Translations under genes and position numbers: made by a program
Part shown: positions 13,260-25,948 of the stretch, piece after piece
Layout: every line of letters begins with the position of its first letter
How positions within the stretch are numbered: position 1 is the stretch's first letter
Assembly (NCBI GenBank): GCA_002720865.1
Contig: PBIO01000011.1
Span: forward strand, 186,001 to 250,000
Source of the DNA: Halobacteriovorax sp.
GTDB lineage: Bacteria; Bdellovibrionota; Bacteriovoracia; Bacteriovoracales; Bacteriovoracaceae
DNA length: 64,000 nucleotides
Direction: 5' to 3'
The notes under the pieces: generated by a model
What the model was told of the DNA's origin: nothing
The model's database searches: none
What the model saw: the letters and a program-made list of their open reading frames with translations, nothing else

Positions 13260-14516
13260 ATGGACCCGTTTAGTTATATCGTTATCGTTATCCTTTGCTT
13301 AGTGCTCTCGGCCTTCTTTTCAGGAAGTGAGACGGCCCTATTAAGACTTACTAAAGACAAAGTCGATAGTGATCTTGAAAAATCAAGCAACCTCTCCATC
13401 ATGGCCGCTAAAGAGCTAATAAAAACACCCGCAAAACTCCTTGTGACCATTTTACTTGGAAACAATGTGGTTAATATCCTTGGAGCTTCTTGTGCCTCGG
13501 CCCTAGGGGTTTACTACTTTGGGGAGCAAAAAGGACTTATCATCTCAACCATCGGAATGACCTTAGTTGTCCTTATCTTTTCAGAAATCCTTCCTAAGTC
13601 CGTGGCCGCAAAAAACCCGGGGAAGCTAGGATACTTCTGCTCTCTTCCCTTATTTCTTATCCATAAAGCCTCTACTCCTATTCACTTTGTTTACGAAAGA
13701 ACCATTGATCCACTGGTTAGACTAATTGCGGGTAAACAAAACGAAGGTCCTCAATCAAGTACAGCAGAGGCCATCATGAAACTTGCGGAAGGATTAAAAA
13801 GCCGAAAAGGAGATGGAACCCCTATTCCAATTATTGGCTCCGCCGCTGCGGCAGCTTCCCTCTACGCAGAAGATATTCTCATCTCAAGGGCAGAAATCTT
13901 CGCCCTAGAAGAGCATACCTCGATCCAAGAAGCAGAGAAAAAGCTTGGTAAGTCTCGTTACACCAGGGCCATCGTCTATCAAGACACATTAGATAAAGTC
14001 CTTGGCATCATTCACCTAAAAGACTTAGTTCGTGCCAATAACTCTGAAGAGCTTGAAAAGAAAAAAACAATCAACGACATTATTAAGCCTGTTCTTTTTG
14101 TGCCAGGAAAGATGCCCATACTCTCCCTACTTCCGCGTATGCAAAAAGGACTTATCCATACGGCCGTGGTCCAAGACGCCTTTGGGATCACCAAGGGCAT
14201 GATCACTCAAGAAGATATCCTCGAAGAAATTGTAGGAGAAATCAGAGATGAGTTCGACACGGACGAGCTAAAGCGAATCAAAAAAATCACCCCAGAAAAA
14301 TACGAAGTCCTTGGAAAACTCTCCCTCCACGACTTTAACCGCGAAACCGGCTGGAACCTTTCAGGAGAAAGAGGCGAAAGCATCAGCGAAATCCTCTTCA
14401 CCGAACTAGGCCGCACCCCCAAAAAGGACGACGCCATCACCATCGATGACTACTCCCTAAAGGTCCTCGACATGTCCGGAAAACGCCTTGCGAGAATTGA
14501 AATTATTAAGAATTAA
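13260..14516 (+). CDS. CNNM/CorC-HlyC family membrane protein
   Basis: Residues 1-190 are a CNNM (DUF21) transmembrane domain with about three to four membrane helices and the FFSGSETALL start. A tandem CBS pair follows (about 215-330, with HLKDLV and QEDILEEIVGEI), then a CorC/HlyC-type C-terminal domain (about 340-418, HDFNRETGWNL and VLDMSGKRLARIEI). Family members handle Mg2+ or Co2+ at the inner membrane, with CBS domains sensing nucleotides. The start lies 2 bp after the ATP-grasp stop. Confidence 0.9.
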   Translation: MDPFSYIVIVILCLVLSAFFSGSETALLRLTKDKVDSDLEKSSNLSIMAAKELIKTPAKLLVTILLGNNVVNILGASCASALGVYYFGEQKGLIISTIGMTLVVLIFSEILPKSVAAKNPGKLGYFCSLPLFLIHKASTPIHFVYERTIDPLVRLIAGKQNEGPQSSTAEAIMKLAEGLKSRKGDGTPIPIIGSAAAAASLYAEDILISRAEIFALEEHTSIQEAEKKLGKSRYTRAIVYQDTLDKVLGIIHLKDLVRANNSEELEKKKTINDIIKPVLFVPGKMPILSLLPRMQKGLIHTAVVQDAFGITKGMITQEDILEEIVGEIRDEFDTDELKRIKKITPEKYEVLGKLSLHDFNRETGWNLSGERGESISEILFTELGRTPKKDDAITIDDYSLKVLDMSGKRLARIEIIKN

Positions 14517-15291
14517 GTTTTTCTAGCTCCGAGAGATAGCTTTTATACAGATTACAAAGGGGTACCCATATTGAGTTGGCTCTTTTAACCGGAGCCACTT
14601 CTAACTCAAACTTTTTTAAATCATCGGGAATCCCTTCATAAAGATCCACCATCGTTTTTTGATTATTTAATTCGTAGGGATATAACTCTTGAACTTTTTC
14701 CACCACCTCAGCGAGTGGAACTTTTTGACTAATAAGATTGCTGGCGTACTTTGATGCCTTTCTTGCTTCATTAATTCGCCATTCAAGTTTTTCTATCTCT
14801 TTAACCACATGCTCTTTTTGTCTTTCAAGCATCGTTTTTGAATTTAACAAATGCTTAAGTTCAATCTGGAAGGTTGGTGATACTTTTCCCATTTCACTTG
14901 TGAGCATACTCTCTAGTTTATGAGAGTAAACATCCACAAAGTGATAAAGAAATAAAAAGGTTCCAAGCCCTCCGGCCACGGGTCTTATATCAGTTGAAAC
15001 TAAACTTGATACAATTTCATGGAGCCCTATACGTGTTAAATGATAAATAGGTACGCCAGAACTATTTTCCTTACGTAAGATCTCTTGCTCAGTGAGCTTT
15101 TCTAAAAATCTACTGATTTGTGTGTTTTGTATATTGATCGAAGGTCCTGGCAATAAGGACTCTATCCAATTGGTAAAGACTTCTAAAAAATATTTTACGT
15201 CCTTTTGTCTAAACCCCTGTTCAGAGCTGCTTGAATGAGCCGCTAAGATTGAAGTGTATAAGAATGGTTTAAATTCCTTATATTTTGACAT
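14506..15291 (-). CDS. Putative winged-helix protein with coiled coil
   Basis: A 261-residue cytoplasmic protein. Residues 50-95 read like a winged helix (TQISRFLEKLTEQEILRK, then YHLTRIGLHEI). A charged helical stretch (about 160-200) suggests dimerisation. No signal peptide and no named domain. It overlaps the end of the CNNM gene by 11 bp and sits just downstream of the Gly-rich pair, possibly in the same transcript. A regulator role is only a guess. Confidence 0.55.
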   Translation of the reverse strand: MSKYKEFKPFLYTSILAAHSSSSEQGFRQKDVKYFLEVFTNWIESLLPGPSINIQNTQISRFLEKLTEQEILRKENSSGVPIYHLTRIGLHEIVSSLVSTDIRPVAGGLGTFLFLYHFVDVYSHKLESMLTSEMGKVSPTFQIELKHLLNSKTMLERQKEHVVKEIEKLEWRINEARKASKYASNLISQKVPLAEVVEKVQELYPYELNNQKTMVDLYEGIPDDLKKFELEVAPVKRANSIWVPLCNLYKSYLSELEKLNS

Positions 15292-15309: not shown

Positions 15310-17589
15310 CTAATTTAATTCGTCAGATTTCTTTGATTTTTTAAACTGGGTCACAAGATACTTGGGAAACTCTAAGCTTATAAGAGAATAAGAGATATCT
15401 CCGACACCTAGGACCGCATGTCCGGCCACATGGGCAACACTTCCATAAGAAACCAATAGCCCTCCCCCAGTCAACGCCCCAGTCGCCAAGGTCATTCCTT
15501 TCATTGCTTCATAGGCCATGGCTCCTCCAGCATAGACCGTGGAACCGATAGCCCCCCCAGCGATTGTCACTCCAGCTCCTGTCGTACCAATAAGAGAAGT
15601 TCCGAGGGCTGCTGTTTTTCCAATTCCCCAATACGCTGCCGATGAGGCCGTCCCTAGAGTCGCGATGCTCGCTCCCGTCAGTGCCCCTGCCGTTGGAGCT
15701 ATAATATAAGTAATAGGTTTTCCAAGCCAAGTAAGACCCGAGGCCGTATAGCCGGCCCCAAGAATAGAATACTTTGAGAGTTTACTGGCCGCAAAACTAC
15801 TGGCCCTAATAAATTTTTCAGAAGTATAACCTATCGCTTTAGTTGTATGACCAGTTCCCGAAATAGCCCAGCTCCCAGAGTAGGCCGACGCATACTGAAC
15901 ACCACTGGCCAGTTTTCCCGTTCCTAAAACAGACCAATTCGTTAAAAATGCTGCTGGATAAGAGAAAGCCTTAGTGGTCAAACCATATAAATAGCCTGTC
16001 CCTTGAACGACTCTTCCTGACGAATAGAGACCTCCTTTAACTAGCTTGCCTAAACCTTTTTGAGCATATTCGCCCGTATAACCAAGAGCGCGAGTCGCAG
16101 CAAAAGCAGGATACTTTATTGCCTTTACTCCATATCCTCCTATTTTTCCTCCAAGATACTCAGAACTAGCGAGGGCCACGGCACCAACACCTGAAACAGC
16201 AGGAACAATCACATCACCAATCGTTTGAGTTGAATCGATCACCACCTCTGTTCCTATAAGAGCGGTAGAGGCCGCTGAACTTAAGATAAGACTTGAGGGA
16301 TAAATAACAGCATTATTAACTCCTAGTCCAAGCATACTGACCGTAGATAAAGTCGCTGGCTTTAAAAAAGAGTCATAGAAAATCGCCTTAGTTAAAATTC
16401 CAGTCGATTTAAAAATTCCAGTAACTAAACCAATAATTCCAAAGTCTTCTTCAAAAGAGTTATCCATCTTTCTTTTGTTCTCACTCCAATCACTTCCAAA
16501 ATTTGAAAATGAATTAGAAAGAGTATTTAACAGTGGTCCGTTGATTTTATCCCTTATTTTCTTTGATCTAGTAATTCCTTTTTTATAATTTGGAATTAAT
16601 TTCTTTGAATACTTATCATCAAACCTTTTAAAACCCTTATAAGTAAAAGATGTACCAATGCTCTTTCCTGCTAAATCAAAATGCCTCTTTGAAGAGCTTG
16701 TTAAAGTATCATCAACTTGATGGGAAATGTTGTCCAAGCTACTAAGGAGCTTTCTAGAGCTCTCCTTCATCGATTTATTAAAACTTTCACCATCAATCTT
16801 TGTTAAATAAGAAAACTTATCTCCTGATTTATTTAATTCTTCGAATGTTTTCGTTCCAAAACTTTTAGATATCGAGTAGCTTTTCTTTCCCGTTTGAATG
16901 ACCCTCGTCTTCCATTTCTTAGCAGACTTTGAACTAGTCCGATTGGTTTTCTTAGCCGCTTCCTTTAAATTATCCTTAAATAAAGTCGACCGCCCCAATA
17001 GATGATTGCCAATTTTTTGAAGCCCCTTTCTTGTTTTATAGGCACTGGTTCTTCCATTTTTTAGAATATTAGAGCTAACCGATGCACTTGACTCTCTACT
17101 ACTAGACTTAATCTTCGCCACTGTCTTATCTACCTTAACGCCAACCTTTTTACTCCTATCTAAAGAAAATAAAAAAATGCTTTTTGGAGCAGACAGAGAC
17201 TTTTGAAAAAGCTCATATGCTCCTGTCTGTGATTCCCTATTCACCCTTTTAGTTAATTCCCAGGACTGGTCAAAAATCATTCCCCCAAATTTGGCGCTCC
17301 TCTTACTCCCCTTTTTAATCAAGCTAAAAGACTCACCAACATTATCAATTCCAAGTAAAAGAGACTCCTTAGAAGCACTTCCCATCATCCCAAGCCCTAA
17401 ATCCCAATAGCTTGGGGCCGCAGGAATGATTTTCACACTCGTAAAAGGAATTCGTCCCATTCCATTTTCATAGAGGTCCTTATGGGCAGAATACATATGA
17501 TGCTTAGTATACTTAAGAGGATCTTCCGCTTTCTTTGCAAAAGAATTAAAAGAAAATAATAAAAAAACTAAACCGAAAAATAATTTCAT
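15310..17589 (-). CDS. Secreted two-part protein, basic helical N-terminus and Gly/Ala-rich C-terminus
   Basis: The 759-residue protein has a signal peptide (FGLVFLLFSFNSFAKK). Residues 20-400 are very basic and helical, rich in KS and KR repeats. Residues 400-745 are a hydrophobic region of small residues with many GxG and GxxG elements spaced about 25-35 residues apart. It resembles no family I know. It shares its two-part plan and an N-terminal pattern (AHKDLYENGMGRIP... versus EEHKEMYREGWYIVP...) with the gene directly upstream, so they are paralogues. The ATG overlaps the upstream stop by 1 nt. Confidence 0.6.
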   Translation of the reverse strand: MKLFFGLVFLLFSFNSFAKKAEDPLKYTKHHMYSAHKDLYENGMGRIPFTSVKIIPAAPSYWDLGLGMMGSASKESLLLGIDNVGESFSLIKKGSKRSAKFGGMIFDQSWELTKRVNRESQTGAYELFQKSLSAPKSIFLFSLDRSKKVGVKVDKTVAKIKSSSRESSASVSSNILKNGRTSAYKTRKGLQKIGNHLLGRSTLFKDNLKEAAKKTNRTSSKSAKKWKTRVIQTGKKSYSISKSFGTKTFEELNKSGDKFSYLTKIDGESFNKSMKESSRKLLSSLDNISHQVDDTLTSSSKRHFDLAGKSIGTSFTYKGFKRFDDKYSKKLIPNYKKGITRSKKIRDKINGPLLNTLSNSFSNFGSDWSENKRKMDNSFEEDFGIIGLVTGIFKSTGILTKAIFYDSFLKPATLSTVSMLGLGVNNAVIYPSSLILSSAASTALIGTEVVIDSTQTIGDVIVPAVSGVGAVALASSEYLGGKIGGYGVKAIKYPAFAATRALGYTGEYAQKGLGKLVKGGLYSSGRVVQGTGYLYGLTTKAFSYPAAFLTNWSVLGTGKLASGVQYASAYSGSWAISGTGHTTKAIGYTSEKFIRASSFAASKLSKYSILGAGYTASGLTWLGKPITYIIAPTAGALTGASIATLGTASSAAYWGIGKTAALGTSLIGTTGAGVTIAGGAIGSTVYAGGAMAYEAMKGMTLATGALTGGGLLVSYGSVAHVAGHAVLGVGDISYSLISLEFPKYLVTQFKKSKKSDELN

Positions 17590-18959
17590 TACTCTTTCTC
17601 CTTTAAATCTTCTACTGCTCCGTCAATAACATCCTTTACTCGTTCGCTATCCTTTAAAATCACTTCCACCTTATAACCGCTCTTTTCAAGCTTACTCACA
17701 TCAAGAGCGGTACCGGCCGGAAGCTTATTTAAGCTTTTATCCTTTCCTCTAATTGAGGCGATAACAAGATCGGGACCATCCACGACAACAGCAAGAACTG
17801 CTCCCATGGACATTAAAACAGTATGGGCAGGAAGCGCCACCATGGCATTATAACCAAGTACCATTGCTGACTTAGATGTAGTAAAAACGGTTTTCCCAGT
17901 GGCCTTTCCAAAATTATAAAACATAGACCCCACATGCTTACCAGTTCCAATCATTGAGCTTCCTATGACCTGACTCCCAGATGTAACTGCTCCAGCTGAA
18001 CTTATCACCACGCGGTTAAATGCAGAAAGTCCATGTCCTCCGACATAAGTTGGCATCACTGATGCGGCTCCTAAAATACCAAGTGAGGCATAAACTCCAG
18101 ACTCTACATAGGGCGATAATACATGGACTCCTAATTTACCCGTGTGAAATAAAACTCCACCCAAATTACTTACACCTCGGTAGGCCGTACTTGCGGCCAC
18201 GACAGGAGGAAAGAGAACCATCCCCCCACCTTTTTTCAAATTTCTTCCGCTAGGCTTAACCACTCCATAATAGGCCCACTTCAAGTAGCCCCATAAAACT
18301 TTTGGAATTGCTGTTATAGAATTGGATGCCTTTCCAGACTTATGATACTGATCTTCAAATTCGGCTTTGGCCTTTTTTAAACTACCTTTCCAAGAACGAT
18401 CAACCTCGCTCCCTTTCTTACTTCTAAATTTCCTTATAAATCTCTTAAAGTTTTTGATATCACCAGAGATCTCATCTCTCGTTTTACGAGGTGAGTTCAC
18501 TATGGCCTCAAGATCCTTTTCCATGCGGTTTACAAATTTCACATGCCCAAGAACAAAATGCTCCTTGGCCTTCCCAAAATTATTTTTTGAAAACTCCCAC
18601 TCGCTCCGGCTCAACTCTCTCGTTTCCTTTCGAATCGATTTAGAAGTTCTCTTAGAAAACTCATTTATCTTCTTAAGTGTCTGAAGCGCTTTTTTCGGAT
18701 GCTCCTTCTGAAAGGCCACAAACTCCGCCGAATCCTTCTTAAAGCTCGCCGCAAACTCCGCCCATGCCCTCGGCGTAGTCTTACTCACATCCCTATAAAT
18801 TTCCTTAAAATTCTTTTTCGTCGCTGGCACAATATACCAACCTTCCCGGTACATTTCCTTATGCTCCTCCACACTCCTCTCAAGAAAGTACTTCTTCTCC
18901 CTCGCAAAAAGCTCAAAGCACATACAGGCCATCACAAAAACAACGATCAAATTCCTCAT
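17589..18959 (-). CDS. Secreted paralogue of the downstream Gly-rich protein
   Basis: The start is taken at 18959 behind GGAGACAAT (an ATG at 18977 is in frame but lacks a site), giving 456 residues. The signal peptide is NLIVVFVMACMCFELFA. Residues 25-230 are basic and helical (Lys/Arg/Glu-rich), and 230-415 are rich in Gly, Ala, Ser and Val with GxG steps. A short C-terminal KVEVILKDSERVKD segment closes it. Its gene is first in the pair with the downstream 759-residue protein. The twin palindromes upstream probably control both. Export and membrane association are inferred; function is unknown. Confidence 0.6.
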   Translation of the reverse strand: MRNLIVVFVMACMCFELFAREKKYFLERSVEEHKEMYREGWYIVPATKKNFKEIYRDVSKTTPRAWAEFAASFKKDSAEFVAFQKEHPKKALQTLKKINEFSKRTSKSIRKETRELSRSEWEFSKNNFGKAKEHFVLGHVKFVNRMEKDLEAIVNSPRKTRDEISGDIKNFKRFIRKFRSKKGSEVDRSWKGSLKKAKAEFEDQYHKSGKASNSITAIPKVLWGYLKWAYYGVVKPSGRNLKKGGGMVLFPPVVAASTAYRGVSNLGGVLFHTGKLGVHVLSPYVESGVYASLGILGAASVMPTYVGGHGLSAFNRVVISSAGAVTSGSQVIGSSMIGTGKHVGSMFYNFGKATGKTVFTTSKSAMVLGYNAMVALPAHTVLMSMGAVLAVVVDGPDLVIASIRGKDKSLNKLPAGTALDVSKLEKSGYKVEVILKDSERVKDVIDGAVEDLKEKE

Positions 18960-19022
18960 ATTGTCTCCGATTCTCATCCCCGAATCTTATGACAATACCC
19001 ATTCCCCACTGCCCAAAAACAA

Positions 19023-19035
19023 GTTACATTGTAAC
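19023..19035. promoter_or_regulatory. Palindromic operator candidate 1
   Basis: GTTACATTGTAAC is a 13-nt near-palindrome (centre 19029) located 63 bp upstream of the Gly-rich pair's start. It is nearly identical to a second copy at 19096, with centres about 73 bp (seven helical turns) apart. Confidence 0.6.
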
Positions 19036-19095
19036 AAATTCACTTTTAAAACAATCCCAGACGGCATCTATTCGTTTTTTAATAGCGTCAAAAAT

Positions 19096-19108
19096 GTTAC
19101 AATGTAAC
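19096..19108. promoter_or_regulatory. Palindromic operator candidate 2
   Basis: GTTACAATGTAAC, which with flanking T and A makes a perfect 15-nt palindrome (TGTTACA-A-TGTAACA). It is 52 bp before the + strand gene at 19161. With the copy at 19023, it suggests two dimer sites for one regulator shared by the divergent genes. Confidence 0.6.
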
Positions 19109-19160: not shown

Positions 19161-19775
19161 ATGAGATGCCCATATTGTTCACATGAATTTCCACTCACTA
19201 GAGAACGTTATTTTGGTGCCGTAACCGGAAAGCACACCTGTCCAAATTGCATGGAGATATCAAGGTTAAAATGTGAGAGCTGGTGGATACCAGTTGTTTT
19301 TTACTCAAAGTATCTGTTTGGTTTTCTCGCTATACTTATTCTTGTAACAATTCTTGCAATATTTTTTGATATTCCTAGAAATGCTTTGCTAGTAATAAAA
19401 ATCATACTGATCATTAAATTTGCCTACGTTGTTCTTAAAGCTGATATGAAGCACGATGAAGAAGTCAAAAAATTGGTTAAGATCGATCACAAAGAACAAT
19501 ACTTCAAAAAAATAAAAGAAAATGACAAGTATCAGGGTGATGATGATTGGAGGATTGGCCCTCAATCAATTGATTTTAACAATCTAAAACTATATTTTCG
19601 CCAATATAGTCCTCAAGTTGGTGATGACCACGATCATTGCGATTTCTGTGGAGAAAAGTTCTCTATAATAATTGAAGAGGCCTTAAAAGAAGGGTACGTA
19701 ACTGAAAATGGATATCCTTGGGTCTGCAAACAATGCTACGAAGACTTTAAAGAAAGATTTAATCTAACTAGCTAA
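19161..19775 (+). CDS. Membrane protein with two zinc-binding modules
   Basis: The 204-residue protein starts with a zinc ribbon (CPYC...CPNC, about residues 3-33). Two membrane helices follow (about 45-67 and 73-92), then a soluble C-terminal part with HCDFCGEKFS and WVCKQCYEDF, a second four-Cys module. Both metal sites should face the cytoplasm. No family name is recognised. It is divergent from the Gly-rich pair across the twin palindromes. It is the last gene before the first tRNA-Arg-derived att-like copy. Confidence 0.6.
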   Translation: MRCPYCSHEFPLTRERYFGAVTGKHTCPNCMEISRLKCESWWIPVVFYSKYLFGFLAILILVTILAIFFDIPRNALLVIKIILIIKFAYVVLKADMKHDEEVKKLVKIDHKEQYFKKIKENDKYQGDDDWRIGPQSIDFNNLKLYFRQYSPQVGDDHDHCDFCGEKFSIIIEEALKEGYVTENGYPWVCKQCYEDFKERFNLTS

Positions 19776-19837: not shown

Positions 19838-21079
19838 TTAGCCACACTCTTTTCCAGAGTTACAGTGTTTATTTATCTTAGGTCTGTAGTATTTCCACTC
19901 CTCTCTTTTGACCCTAAGCTCAAGTTTAAGTTTTTTCTGACAGATATTTTCGTCATATATCTCTATCGGAGTTGCACCTTCCAAAGTGGAAGTTGGCATA
20001 TTATTGAACAACTCAACCGCTCTTTTGACCTTTTTATACAACCTTCCATAGGTGATAGGCTGGTATTTATTAATGAACCTATTCTTAAGTACACTGAAAA
20101 AAGACTCAACCATAGAATTCGAAAAGATCACATCTTTTCTCGCTATCATTTTCGTAATATTTTTACCAACTAATAGCTGTCGGACTTGTCCTCCAGTATT
20201 TTCTCCTCCACCATCACTCATCAGAAAATTCGGTTGACTCTCTTTTATCACCCCTTTCAGGTTCTTAATTGTCATGGCTTGTCCTTTCTTAAGACTGACC
20301 TTCCAATTAATGATCTTCCTGGAATAGTTATCCATTACAACTTGAACATAAGCATTCCGACCTTCTCTTAGTCGAAAGTAAGTCACATCAATATGCCAAA
20401 TTTCGTTTGGCCTAGAGGCTCTAATTCCCAATCTCGCCCTTTTTCGTTTTCTTTTCTTTCTTGGTCTACGACCAAACTCTCGTGCATATTTTCTCCAACA
20501 GTCATAACCAAAATAGAGATTCTCATGGCGAAAACCATGATATTGAAGACCTTTTACTGACAAGTGAGATAACTTAGGGTCCGCAACCATTTCTTGAACT
20601 TTCTTTTGTTCCGCGAATGTAATTTGATTGGGCGCCATTATTTTACACTTGTTAAAACTTATTTTTGGACAGCCCTTCGTTTCGACTTTAAATCTATAAT
20701 ACTTATCACTTCTGATTCTCATGCACCGACAGAGCGCAGATAAAGAAATCCATTTACGATACTTATCTATAATATCAATTATCTTTTCCCTATTTTGTTT
20801 GAGGTTATAGACATCTCTGACCCCCGTAAGGTTAGCTAACAATTCTTGAACGAATAAATTTTTTGCCTTCTCTTCTTGTAGCTCTTTTTCGAGTCTTTCA
20901 ATTTTATCCTCCAAGGCCTTATTAAAGTTTAGATTACCTACACGAACTCTTTTCTTTGCACTCCTAATCCAATACAAAGCTGTAGTTCTTGGGATATTAA
21001 GCTCGGGAAATAGGTTAGGATTTCCACTCTTGATGATCATTTTCTTGATTGAATCATCATATTTCTTATACTGAGCCAT
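19838..21079 (-). CDS. DDE transposase, IS481/IS3-like
   Basis: A single 413-residue ORF. The N-terminal HTH part (about residues 1-60) is followed by a coiled stretch, a second HTH-like region, and the rve integrase core. The core shows HIDVTYFRL (first Asp, about residue 229), FLMSDGGGENTGG (second Asp, about 286) and SMVESFFSVLKNRF (Glu, about 320). IS3 elements usually split this over two frames, so one uninterrupted ORF is closer to IS481-like or fused IS3 types. No clear terminal inverted repeats were found; a weak candidate pair is TGAGGTTGCCTA (19811) against the complement near 21155. Confidence 0.8.
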   Translation of the reverse strand: MAQYKKYDDSIKKMIIKSGNPNLFPELNIPRTTALYWIRSAKKRVRVGNLNFNKALEDKIERLEKELQEEKAKNLFVQELLANLTGVRDVYNLKQNREKIIDIIDKYRKWISLSALCRCMRIRSDKYYRFKVETKGCPKISFNKCKIMAPNQITFAEQKKVQEMVADPKLSHLSVKGLQYHGFRHENLYFGYDCWRKYAREFGRRPRKKRKRKRARLGIRASRPNEIWHIDVTYFRLREGRNAYVQVVMDNYSRKIINWKVSLKKGQAMTIKNLKGVIKESQPNFLMSDGGGENTGGQVRQLLVGKNITKMIARKDVIFSNSMVESFFSVLKNRFINKYQPITYGRLYKKVKRAVELFNNMPTSTLEGATPIEIYDENICQKKLKLELRVKREEWKYYRPKINKHCNSGKECG

Positions 21080-21883: not shown

Positions 21884-24800
21884 TTACTCTTCTGGGCAAT
21901 CAGGGGTCACCCCACTAAAAGTTTTAGTTTTATCTTTAGAGCCAAAGTGATCTTCTACTCTTAATTTTAACTCAAGATCTCTTGTACTTCCACAAGCGAT
22001 ATCCCAATATCCAGAAAACGATGATCCACCACTGTTTCCACTGCTGAAGCCTCCAAGCCACCTGTAAGAAAGAACATTTCTACCAAAAGTATCCTCTGAA
22101 GTTGAGCCTGATGCCGTAACATTAAATCTAAAACTCTTACCATCTCCATTAATGTCCACTCTATCAACATCAAAGTTACTTATAACTGATCTTAAATTCC
22201 ATTTCTTTGTTTTAAAATTAATACTCTTATCAGATAAACTATTATTAAAGACACCTAGTTCAAAAGTTGGAGAAGAAAAATTTCCTGTATTTATATTTGT
22301 TATACAACGAGCAAGATAATAAAGTTCATTATTAAATACTGTTGTCAGTTGAAGGGAATCATTGGATATATTGAATATACTGTCTTCTCCGTCAGTCGCA
22401 GAAAGTTTGTTTATAGAATAGATGACAAGGTCTTTATCTTGTTTGCCTACATTTATCAATGTTCCATCACCATTATCACTTTGCCCTACATAGTTACTAC
22501 AGCCAGCTCCAGTGCTATCCGTATAGTTAAATTCTCTAATTGTTAGTCCTAATGGACCAATGTTTTGTCCACCTTTTGTTAAGTCAAATTTATTGCTTGA
22601 AGTACCGATATAGCTATCAATATTATTCTCTGGTCTGCTTCCTTGATTATTTGATCTTTTTAAAACTTCTATCAATGTTTCAACTTTAGCTAGTTGTAAA
22701 GATTCAATTCCTTTTTCTTCAACCTTTTTCTTTTGAAACTCGGCTATCATCGTTTCATTTTCTGTCTCAAATTCAAAGCCATCTCTTATAGCATTTATAA
22801 AAGAAATATGACCTTCAGGCATAAAGTCCCAAAAGAGGTATTTTTCATACCAGCGAATAGAGCGTTTTTTAGTACTTTCTAGTCCATTTGCTAAAAGAGA
22901 AGGAACGGTCGAATAATAACTACGATCTTCGAATACAACGTCGTTAATATATCTTTTAGCGATATCAGGATAAGCACCCATAACTCCATTTATCGCAATG
23001 TCTTCAGCAATAGACTCACGAGCGGCGTCAGTAGGAGTGCTTTCCCTGCATCCAATCGTATTAAATTGGTCTATATGTGCTAATTCGTGTATCAATAATA
23101 CGTCTATTGATTTACGAAAATTAGTGGCATTATACTCACCATTTAAGAAAATTGTTGACTCTGTATATGCGCCTGTTTTTGAGACGGAGCCAATCCCATT
23201 ACCTGAAAGATTATTTTTTCTTGAACTCAAGAATATTGTTTTTGGTAAACCTAAGTTACTTGTATAATTTCTTTGAATTGCTCGTATTAAATATCTCATA
23301 TTCTCATTAAAGTTTTCATCTATTATATCTGGTCTATCTGAAATTATCTGAACCCCTTTATAGGTTTTTTCATATTTAAATTCACTATAGCCCGGTGTGC
23401 CGTAGTCAATAGTTATTATTGTGTAGTTTAATGCTTCTTGTAAGCTACTAAACCCAAATGGACATATTCCTTGTGACTTATTAATAGGAATAGTTTGTTC
23501 TTGAGGATCAAATCGACTATGAAACAGTCCATCAGAAGTTAAATCTCTACCCGTTATTGTATATCTGTAACTTTCATTTAAGTTTGATAAATGCAAAAAG
23601 ACATTAGATTTAGGAACAGTTTCAAAAAAAATCTTCGTTGATTCGTTTGACTCTACTTTTTTAACCGTTAAATCAACAGGTGAAGTTAACCCATCTTCAA
23701 ATTCAAGCTCTAGACCGTGTTCCAGTGTGCCGGGAGCATTAATCTGTAGAATTTGGCCAGATGAAACATTACTTGCTTGAAATATCACAGTTGGGTTAAC
23801 AATATCGACAAATATGCTTCTATTAAATGTAAAATTATCTTTAGTTACTTCATAAACAAGCTCAATTTTTCCAACTTCTGATACTACTGGGGTAAACGTA
23901 AACTCACCAGTCAGAGAATCAAAGCTATGATTTACTTGATTACCTACTATAGATAAGTTGAAAGATGCTACACCGCTAGTTGTATTACTTTCAAATCTTG
24001 GAGTAAATGAAAACTCTCTTCCTACAATCGCAGTAAATTCATTTTCTTCTCCAATATACGCTGGGCCAGCACTTGCATTGATTGGTATTTGTGCCTCGGC
24101 AAAAGAGCCATCTTCATCGCTAACTTTTAAAAAGAGTATTTTTTCTCCTGTGGTCGTAATGGTTTTGTTAAAAATACCACTATTAAATTCTTCACCATCT
24201 TCATCTGTCCAAGTAAAGGTTAGGCTTTTTCCCTCTGGGTCTGTACTCGTTGAAGCGTCTACGCTTATTTCAAATGGTACAGTCCCTACAAAAGATTCAG
24301 TATTTAATCCAATAAGAGGAATACCATTAACAAGAACATTTCTTGTCATTGTTGATGAGTTATCCCACTCATTTATTATTGTTAAACTAACTTCGTGAGT
24401 TCCAAGAGGAAGATTTTCAAAGATCACGGACTCATCATTTGAATACTCTACATCATTTAATTTCCAAGTCCTTTGAATAATATTTGCTGAATCTCCAGCA
24501 GATGATAGATCAGAAGTTGCTGAAAAAGAAGTATTTGGATTCGCTAGGAAAGGTAGTTCTGAAATAAAGGCATCAGGAATAGGTGCTTTTTTAAATTCTA
24601 AAGAGAGGCTATCTTTCTCTACAAAAAAGCCATTATCAAAATCAATTCTAAGTGAGGCCGTTAGGTCGTTATCATCTGAAACAGAAAAACTAACTGATTC
24701 ACCTGTGTAGGAATCTCCGTTACTGACAATCCAAGAGTAAGAACTAACCGTATTCCCAAAATGGCTACTGGTTGAAGAACAATCAACTTCCCTTATTTCA

Positions 24801-25948
24801 CCTTGAAGGCAGTTAATAGAAATCACAGGAATGTCTTCTATTGTTACTTGCGCTTGAACAGGTGCGCTCACTTGTCCAGAAGTATCAACAACCTGTAAGG
24901 AGATCGTTTTCATTCCGGCAAAAGAATAAGTATGCCTTACAGGACTTCCGTCATTTGAAACTAGAGTATTTCCATCACCAAAATTATAATTGTATTCTGA
25001 TATTCCTAAATCATCACTTGAGCCATTAGGGTTACACTCAATTTCATCAAAATTAACAAGAGAGCAAGATAACATCGCGATAGGTGCATTATCCTCTGCT
25101 TTAATAAGAGTGACACTAGAGCTTACCTGATCGCCTCTTGATGTAATAGCGGTAGCAACGCCAAGATAAGAGCCATTTGCTTCATACTGATGAGTAAATC
25201 TATTTTCGCTAAATACTCCATCTTCGGCGGCGAGTATTTCAATCGTACCATCACCCCAATTCATTTGAATTTCTGTTAACTCTTCTGTTTTATCAACTGA
25301 GAGAACATCGCAAATAAAATCGCCTGCATTGTTATCTGAAAAACATGATACTTCTGCGATTAGATCAGCACCGGATTCAGTCACAACGACTCGCTGAGTT
25401 TGTGAATCCGTTTTTCCTGCAAAATCTGTAACTGTTAAAGTTGCAAAGTAAACCCCAGGATTATAGAAATGAACAACGTCAGATCCCGTCCCTGTTGAGC
25501 CATCGCCATACGCCCAGTGGTAGCTAATTATTTCACCATTGGGACTTCCTGAGTATTGTTCTAAAAATCTAACATGACCCGTATTTTCTCCTTCAAATTC
25601 TACATAGACCTCATAGTTCGCAACTGGATTAAGCATTTCGGGGTCAGTGCTATCAACTGTAATTTCTTTTGATAAACTTGTTGTTAACCCTGATTCACTC
25701 GTCATGCTAACCGTTACGTTATAAGTTCCACTTGAAGCGTAGTTATGAGTAAAGAAATACTTCTCAGCTTCTTCTGGCTCGCTTCCATCACCCCAATCAA
25801 TAGTCATTCCTATAAACTCATAAGGGTCAAAAGAATCTACCGCATTTAAAAAGACCTGATTAGGCCCAGACTGAGCTAGATTAAATCTTACATAAGGCGC
25901 ACCTTCATTAGTTGTTAAATCAACAAAGAAATTTAAAGCTACGGCCAA
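21884..25948 (-). CDS. PKD-repeat protein with HExxH metalloprotease-like domain, N-terminus missing
   Basis: The 1354-residue reading frame contains about seven PKD or PKD-like repeats (about residues 20-630; conserved WGDGS, FGDG and HxYxxxGxY motifs). A He_PIG-like cadherin-type repeat follows (about 640-720), then a putative zinc protease region (HELAHIDQF near residue 960, with ESIAED about 20 residues on) and a final beta-rich PKD-like tail. Such proteins are secreted adhesins or proteases. No ATG, signal peptide or Shine-Dalgarno site fits the start; the best is TTG 25948, and the frame opens 20 codons earlier in unrelated-looking sequence. It is probably a 5'-truncated remnant. Confidence 0.7.
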   Translation of the reverse strand: MAVALNFFVDLTTNEGAPYVRFNLAQSGPNQVFLNAVDSFDPYEFIGMTIDWGDGSEPEEAEKYFFTHNYASSGTYNVTVSMTSESGLTTSLSKEITVDSTDPEMLNPVANYEVYVEFEGENTGHVRFLEQYSGSPNGEIISYHWAYGDGSTGTGSDVVHFYNPGVYFATLTVTDFAGKTDSQTQRVVVTESGADLIAEVSCFSDNNAGDFICDVLSVDKTEELTEIQMNWGDGTIEILAAEDGVFSENRFTHQYEANGSYLGVATAITSRGDQVSSSVTLIKAEDNAPIAMLSCSLVNFDEIECNPNGSSDDLGISEYNYNFGDGNTLVSNDGSPVRHTYSFAGMKTISLQVVDTSGQVSAPVQAQVTIEDIPVISINCLQGEIREVDCSSTSSHFGNTVSSYSWIVSNGDSYTGESVSFSVSDDNDLTASLRIDFDNGFFVEKDSLSLEFKKAPIPDAFISELPFLANPNTSFSATSDLSSAGDSANIIQRTWKLNDVEYSNDESVIFENLPLGTHEVSLTIINEWDNSSTMTRNVLVNGIPLIGLNTESFVGTVPFEISVDASTSTDPEGKSLTFTWTDEDGEEFNSGIFNKTITTTGEKILFLKVSDEDGSFAEAQIPINASAGPAYIGEENEFTAIVGREFSFTPRFESNTTSGVASFNLSIVGNQVNHSFDSLTGEFTFTPVVSEVGKIELVYEVTKDNFTFNRSIFVDIVNPTVIFQASNVSSGQILQINAPGTLEHGLELEFEDGLTSPVDLTVKKVESNESTKIFFETVPKSNVFLHLSNLNESYRYTITGRDLTSDGLFHSRFDPQEQTIPINKSQGICPFGFSSLQEALNYTIITIDYGTPGYSEFKYEKTYKGVQIISDRPDIIDENFNENMRYLIRAIQRNYTSNLGLPKTIFLSSRKNNLSGNGIGSVSKTGAYTESTIFLNGEYNATNFRKSIDVLLIHELAHIDQFNTIGCRESTPTDAARESIAEDIAINGVMGAYPDIAKRYINDVVFEDRSYYSTVPSLLANGLESTKKRSIRWYEKYLFWDFMPEGHISFINAIRDGFEFETENETMIAEFQKKKVEEKGIESLQLAKVETLIEVLKRSNNQGSRPENNIDSYIGTSSNKFDLTKGGQNIGPLGLTIREFNYTDSTGAGCSNYVGQSDNGDGTLINVGKQDKDLVIYSINKLSATDGEDSIFNISNDSLQLTTVFNNELYYLARCITNINTGNFSSPTFELGVFNNSLSDKSINFKTKKWNLRSVISNFDVDRVDINGDGKSFRFNVTASGSTSEDTFGRNVLSYRWLGGFSSGNSGGSSFSGYWDIACGSTRDLELKLRVEDHFGSKDKTKTFSGVTPDCPEE

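What the first reader, a model, noticed from the sequence alone, without database searches (positions are those of the whole stretch)
15310..19108. Tandem Gly/Ala-rich secreted paralogues behind twin palindromes
Two large exported proteins share a basic helical half and a small-residue, GxG-repeated half, unlike any family I know. Their divergent upstream region holds two 13-nt palindromes 73 bp apart, seven helical turns. A dedicated regulator and a possible pore-forming or surface role in predation are worth testing.
Basis: partly seen in the sequence, partly recalled or inferred. Interest (0 to 1): 0.68.

Follow-up and report, generated by a model that had tools for sequence, protein, structure and literature searches.

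The report
Paired eleven-residue-repeat envelope proteins, stress-type regulator
Two neighbouring genes make secreted proteins built almost wholly from an 11-residue helical repeat that no database describes; the same pair turns up in three bacterial phyla, and here a small DNA-binding protein that elsewhere sits beside membrane-stress genes probably controls it.

Summary
Genes A (17589-18977, -) and B (15310-17589, -) encode secreted, basic-then-Gly/Ala-rich paralogues. Their profiles match (E 2e-31), though the two window proteins alone barely do (E 0.014). Both palindromes are exact, 73 bp apart, and the only exact copies in the 4.9-Mb genome.

New: (1) Both proteins are long 11-residue (hendecad) repeats. 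Hydrophobicity peaks at 97-99 degrees per residue, and 0 of 63 core a/d/h positions in B's polar half are charged. (2) The pair occurs in 5/369 Bdellovibrionota and 18/396 sampled Nitrospirota genomes (most as full pairs) and on Leptospira biflexa p74 and L. kobayashii pE30-1. No Pfam, NCBIfam or PHROGs family matches. A predation role is therefore unlikely. B carries a lipobox in 16 of 17 members, but not in this window. (3) The palindromes track the winged-helix gene just downstream (14506-15291). All three other genomes with that gene carry twin sites 63-65 bp apart; in two they precede a PspA/IM30 gene. No twin site was found elsewhere.

Best reading: an A-B-regulator operon for an envelope helical scaffold made under membrane stress. 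The regulator-operator link is strong by co-occurrence; the protein function is inferred. Structure prediction failed (pLDDT 38 and 30).

The parts
17589..18977 (-). gene A, 462 aa secreted protein (in-frame alternative start at 18959): basic helical half, Gly-rich half, conserved C-terminal domain
15310..17589 (-). gene B, 759 aa secreted paralogue; SPI-type signal peptide instead of the lipobox present in the other 16 complete family members compared; lacks the conserved last ~45 residues
16699..17391 (-). B residues 67-297: 21 hendecads in one register; a/d/h core positions carry 0 of 63 charged residues
15610..16302 (-). B residues 430-660: apolar Gly/Ala/Ser-rich hendecads with a wide uncharged face
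17589..17870 (-). A C-terminal conserved domain (VLGYNA...DGP.L...LP.GT..D...), shared with full-length B homologues
   Evidence: part of it is the only region of the A model with pLDDT around 55-72
14506..15291 (-). P0003, 261 aa winged-helix protein, 18 bp after B, same strand; proposed regulator of the twin palindromes and probably cotranscribed with A-B
19023..19035 (.). palindrome 1, GTTACATTGTAAC, 46-64 bp upstream of the A start
19096..19108 (.). palindrome 2, (T)GTTACAATGTAAC(A), 73 bp from palindrome 1 and 52 bp upstream of the divergent ORF at 19161
19161..19775 (+). divergent 204-aa zinc-ribbon/membrane ORF sharing the regulatory region; no homologue in 58 other genomes; not shown to belong to the system

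Best explanation
An A-B-regulator operon. A and B are exported and, in nearly all relatives, B (and sometimes A) is lipid-anchored. Each folds as a long, almost straight alpha-helical hendecad rod. The polar N-terminal half forms a coiled coil in the periplasm. The uncharged Gly/Ala-rich half packs as tighter helices in or against a membrane and ends in a shared small C-terminal domain. A and B assemble together into an envelope scaffold or tether. In this genome the winged-helix protein P0003 binds the twin palindromes, about seven helical turns apart and on the same face of the DNA, as cooperating dimers, and controls the operon in response to a membrane or envelope signal; in relatives the same regulator and operator pair sits in front of a PspA/IM30 gene. 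Shown by sequence: pairing, export signals, 11-residue repeat, operator-regulator co-occurrence, PspA context elsewhere. Inferred: oligomer, membrane contact, scaffold role, stress inducer, DNA binding. Rough likelihoods: regulator-operator link 0.85; hendecad helices 0.85; envelope scaffold/tether role 0.4.
For: Repeat: lag-11/22/33 hydrophobicity autocorrelation in the polar half of nearly all B proteins; window B z = 7.6 (polar half) and 4.0 (Gly half) against shuffles; Fourier peak 97-99 degrees, i.e. 11/3 residues per turn, in both halves of most A and B proteins and 96.5-99 degrees over the whole Leptospira proteins. Core positions a/d/h of window B: 0/63 charged, shuffles never below 5. 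37% of alignment gaps of 8 or more residues between B homologues are multiples of 11, about 9% expected. A profile of B matches designed long helical bundles in the PDB (4uos E 4e-4). Pairing: A-B adjacent in Bdellovibrionota, Nitrospirota and Leptospira plasmids. Lipobox in 16/17 B and 6/19 A sequences. Regulator: twin sites beside P0003 homologues in 3 of 3 other genomes, spacing 63/64/65 bp against 73 here (+1 helical turn); none in the other fetched loci nor in 1.6 Mb of the window's own genome; exact palindromes in only 3 of 59 genomes. PspA_IM30 gene behind the twin sites in two of them (E 3.8e-9 and 2.8e-7).
Against: AlphaFold2 gave no usable model (pLDDT 37.6 and 30.4, pTM 0.26 and 0.20), so helical geometry rests on sequence periodicity. 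Some Nitrospirota B proteins show no 98-degree peak in the Gly half (136 degrees). The window's B has lost the lipobox and the conserved C-terminus, so this copy may be altered or degenerating. P0003 does not accompany the pair in other genomes that carry it, so the stress link is local to this lineage. No binding, localisation or expression data exist. Neighbours differ between phyla.
Confidence: 0.45

Rival explanations
1. Lipid-coating proteins: the 11-residue amphipathic helices lie flat on a membrane or lipid surface, as in synuclein, perilipins or apolipoproteins, and stabilise it under stress without forming a coiled-coil rod.
For: Hendecads of 11/3 residues per turn suit either geometry; repeats such as GFVAGEAVKGG recall the synuclein 11-mer (from memory); lipid anchor in 16/17 B proteins; PspA link of the regulator.
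Against: No Pfam match to any such family; the polar half has a canonical narrow a/d/h core rather than a broad lipid-binding face.
Confidence: 0.25
2. Helical pore or secretion conduit: the apolar halves insert in the outer membrane as an alpha-barrel and A/B export or release something.
For: Wide uncharged face and Gly spacing in the C-terminal half; a few uncharged stretches reach mean hydropathy 1.6-2.0 over 19 residues.
Against: Most 19-residue windows stay below 1.6; no pore family match; no transporter partner recognised in the neighbourhoods examined.
Confidence: 0.12
3. Surface fibre or adhesin used in cell-cell contact or predation.
For: Exported, very long helical rods; host phylum includes predators.
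Against: Found in Nitrospirota and saprophytic Leptospira, and in only 5 of 369 Bdellovibrionota genomes.
Confidence: 0.12
4. The palindromes belong to another regulator, or to the divergent ORF at 19161, and P0003 co-occurs by chance.
For: No DNA-binding assay; the second palindrome is 52 bp from the 19161 ORF.
Against: Four of four loci with a P0003 homologue hold twin sites at helically matched spacing; none in the other fetched loci or 1.6 Mb of own genome. Chance of a twin site (2 or fewer mismatches each, 60-75 bp apart) in one 14-kb locus is roughly 3e-4 (my estimate from the site rate).
Confidence: 0.1

Closest known systems
Hendecad coiled-coil proteins (for example FilP and Scy; PMC9858780)
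   Same: 11-residue repeat, uncharged a/d/h core, small residue at one core position, growth and loss by whole repeats
   Different: FilP/Scy are Gram-positive cell-division proteins with a DivIVA-like motif; these are exported, lipid-anchored in most members, paired, and continue the repeat into an apolar Gly/Ala half
PSP (PspA/IM30) envelope stress systems (PMC11237479)
   Same: A winged-helix regulator and twin operator of the same kind stand beside a PspA_IM30 gene in two relatives
   Different: No PspA gene in this locus or in the third of the genome sampled; the regulator matches no PadR or LiaR model; A/B are not named in the passages of that survey that I read
11-mer amphipathic proteins (synuclein, perilipin, LEA, apolipoprotein)
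   Same: 11/3 amphipathic helical repeat
   Different: No profile match; bacterial, exported, with conserved N- and C-terminal domains
ZorA tail (Zorya defence)
   Same: Weak match of B residues 183-299 to the ZorA tail (E 3e-4), both long repetitive helices
   Different: No MotA/ExbB part, no partner genes; treated as compositional similarity

Membership tests
hendecad coiled-coil proteins | 11-residue sequence periodicity over many repeats | tested here: met
   window B z 7.6 and 4.0
hendecad coiled-coil proteins | hydrophobic/small a, d, h core positions in 3-4-4 spacing | tested here: met
   positions 3, 6, 10 of the repeat 0/63 charged, position 3 small (71% G/A/S)
hendecad coiled-coil proteins | alpha-helical structure | tested here: inconclusive
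   models mostly helical but pLDDT 30-38; profile hits designed helical bundles
hendecad coiled-coil proteins | oligomeric bundle | not testable with these tools
   needs biochemistry or multimer modelling
bacterial lipoproteins | signal peptide with lipobox cysteine (window B) | tested here: not met
   LLFSFNSFAKK where the other 16 have a cysteine
bacterial lipoproteins | lipobox in the other B homologues | tested here: met
   16 of 16
PSP (PspA) system | PspA/IM30 protein in the locus | tested here: not met
   none in the window neighbourhood annotated here nor in 1.6 Mb of own genome by tblastn; present in relatives' regulator loci
PadR or other named winged-helix family (P0003) | profile match above cut-off | tested here: not met
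   only sub-threshold winged-helix hits (HTH_27, RTP); PDB 3r0a E 0.067
synuclein/perilipin/LEA/apolipoprotein | profile match | tested here: not met
   ApoLp-III only E 0.35
known pore-forming toxins | profile match | tested here: not met

The most novel reading that the evidence does not exclude
A and B are the two subunits of an undescribed envelope structure: a hendecad rod anchored by lipid that continues in the same 11-residue repeat from the periplasm into a membrane, spread across at least three phyla, and brought in this lineage under a PspA-type stress regulator.
Probability: 0.25. Interest if true: 0.8.

Novelty: new variant of a known kind. Interest (0 to 1): 0.62.

Why it matters
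A two-gene envelope family with no database model, present in three phyla and in a cultured, genetically usable saprophyte (L. biflexa Patoc, LBF_RS18705 and LBF_RS18700), gives a directly testable route to what long exported hendecad proteins do. The regulator with twin operators is a second, separate find: a likely new controller of PspA-type membrane stress genes in Bdellovibrionota.

Tried and rejected
Genome-contig scan with P0002 alone found nothing; the alignment scan found five loci, of far more that exist, so that scan has low sensitivity. Viral contigs and phages: none. Two AlphaFold2 jobs on 5-6 sequence alignments: unusable; fold searches were therefore not run. Pfam, NCBIfam, PHROGs: no match; PADLOC gave only the weak ZorA-tail hit. 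Palindrome upstream of the pair in relatives: absent. The zinc-ribbon ORF as partner: no homologues. P0003 as a conserved partner of the pair: rejected, it travels separately. Short stand-alone C-terminal-domain proteins in G375 and G442: the G375 frame runs off its contig end and the G442 locus looks like a broken pair. Putative sigma-70 promoters: chance level. Searching the own genome for a PspA gene with twin sites: only a third could be read, none found. A 2023 survey of hendecad families (recalled from memory) is not in the library, so I cannot exclude that it lists these proteins.

Full report
Observation. A (462 aa) and B (759 aa) are overlapping reading frames on the minus strand, each with a signal-peptide-like start. 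The palindrome GTTACANTGTAAC has exactly two perfect copies in the 4.9-Mb genome, both in this intergenic region and 73 bp apart. The two window proteins are only marginally alike directly, but with homologues added the A and B profiles align at E 2.4e-31: they are true paralogues sharing an N-terminal LY.NG/GW...P.T motif and a C-terminal domain (GSGIVLSY...LEGPRW...DLP.GT..DL in B, VLGYNA...DGP.L...LPVGT..DL in A).

Distribution. The pair, in the order A then B, is present in 5 of 369 genomes of the window's phylum (the records found by name are Bacteriovoracaceae and Bdellovibrio MAGs) and absent from the two same-genus genomes searched. A is matched in 18 of 396 sampled Nitrospirota genomes, most with full A followed by B, some with fragments at contig ends; in one genome (G503) a second B-like piece lies 280 kb away. 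It is also on Leptospira biflexa plasmid p74 (LBF_RS18705, LBF_RS18700) and L. kobayashii pE30-1, next to periplasmic glucan genes. The published list of p74 genes with orthologues on chromosome I of other Leptospira does not contain the pair (PMC2229662). Trees of A and B keep Nitrospirota and Leptospira each as one group; one Bdellovibrionota member falls near Leptospira (weakly in A), and the window copies are long branches. No family in Pfam, NCBIfam or PHROGs matches, and nothing was found in phage or viral contigs. So the predation reading loses its basis.

What the proteins are. Hydrophobicity along B repeats every 11 residues. The Fourier peak is at 97-99 degrees per residue (11/3 residues per turn) in both halves of window B (z 7.6 and 4.0) and in most halves of the other A and B proteins; the whole Leptospira proteins peak at 96.5-99 degrees. 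In window B the phase is roughly kept from about residue 1 to 297, slips near 300-400, and is kept again from about 430 to 660. Residues 67-297 make 21 hendecads whose positions 3, 6 and 10 (spacing 3-4-4, i.e. a, d, h) hold no charged residue in 63, against a minimum of 5 in 20,000 shuffles. Position 3 is small in 71%, as expected for hendecad cores (definition in PMC9858780). Insertions and deletions between B homologues are enriched for multiples of 11 (144 of 389 gaps of 8 or more; gaps are counted over pairs of related sequences, so they are not independent). The Gly-rich half is therefore most likely the same repeat with an uncharged, small-residue face, not a beta structure, although some Nitrospirota members do not show the helical peak there. 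Sixteen of 17 complete B proteins have a lipobox; the window's has Phe at that place and an SPI-like site, and has also lost the last ~45 residues. AlphaFold2 gave low-confidence helices only.

The regulator. Immediately after B, on the same strand with 18 bp between, lies a 261-aa winged-helix protein, P0003. Homologues (33-44% identity) were found in 3 of 58 other genomes, none of which has the pair. In all three the same palindrome occurs twice: in G017 at 63 bp, in G014 at 65 bp, in G015 at 64 bp spacing, i.e. about six helical turns where the window has about seven. In G017 and G014 the twin sites lie about 67 bp before a PspA/IM30-family gene (the G014 match is slightly below Pfam's cut-off) followed by a ~405-aa hydrophobic membrane protein; in G015 they lie just before the P0003 homologue itself. 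No other fetched locus (about 790 kb including overlaps) and none of 1.6 Mb sampled from the window's genome holds such a pair of sites with 2 or fewer mismatches each. The exact palindrome occurs in only one further genome of 59, once. This is a strong co-occurrence argument that P0003 is the cognate regulator, that it is probably autoregulated, and that in this lineage it has been attached to the A-B pair.

Mechanism. Shown: export signals, pairing, repeat, operator-regulator linkage, PspA context in relatives. Inferred: that P0003 senses membrane stress, that A and B form a joint helical scaffold between or along membranes, and that the apolar half contacts lipid. Rivals are a lipid-coating role, a helical pore and a surface fibre; sequence alone does not separate them, which is why the functional confidence is modest.

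Novelty. Hendecad proteins and PSP-type stress control are known kinds; this exported two-protein family and this operator-regulator set are not in any library searched. A 2023 survey of hendecad families that I recall could not be read here, so prior mention cannot be excluded.

Noticed in passing
L126 4584-6398 and L127 3363-5249: A PspA/IM30-family gene followed by a ~405-aa hydrophobic membrane protein without Pfam match, behind the same twin palindromes: a possible new PSP-type module in Bdellovibrionota
   Followed up: partly
L048 4256-7267 (Bacteriovoracaceae UBA6166): CBASS-like defence operon (CD-NTase cyclase, E2-like protein, SAVED-HNH effector) close to the A-B pair
   Followed up: partly
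L121 4155-11119 and L122/L123 (Leptospira plasmids): The pair stands between divergent glucan genes (MdoG-family; mdoH also in L. biflexa) and a response-regulator GGDEF protein plus a kinase (APH family by Pfam); this arrangement is broadly shared by two Leptospira species
   Followed up: partly
window 19838-21079: Transposase with an integrase core (rve) domain close to the divergent ORF; may bear on how the region was acquired
   Followed up: no
window 19161-19775: Zinc-ribbon protein with hydrophobic segments, no homologue in 58 other genomes; an orphan sharing the operator region
   Followed up: partly
window 21884-25948: 1354-aa protein with at least four PKD domains
   Followed up: no
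L062 4091-4877: In one Nitrospirota genome the pair follows a small hydrophobic-tailed protein and a holin-superfamily-III-like protein (weak Pfam match), possibly in one operon
   Followed up: no
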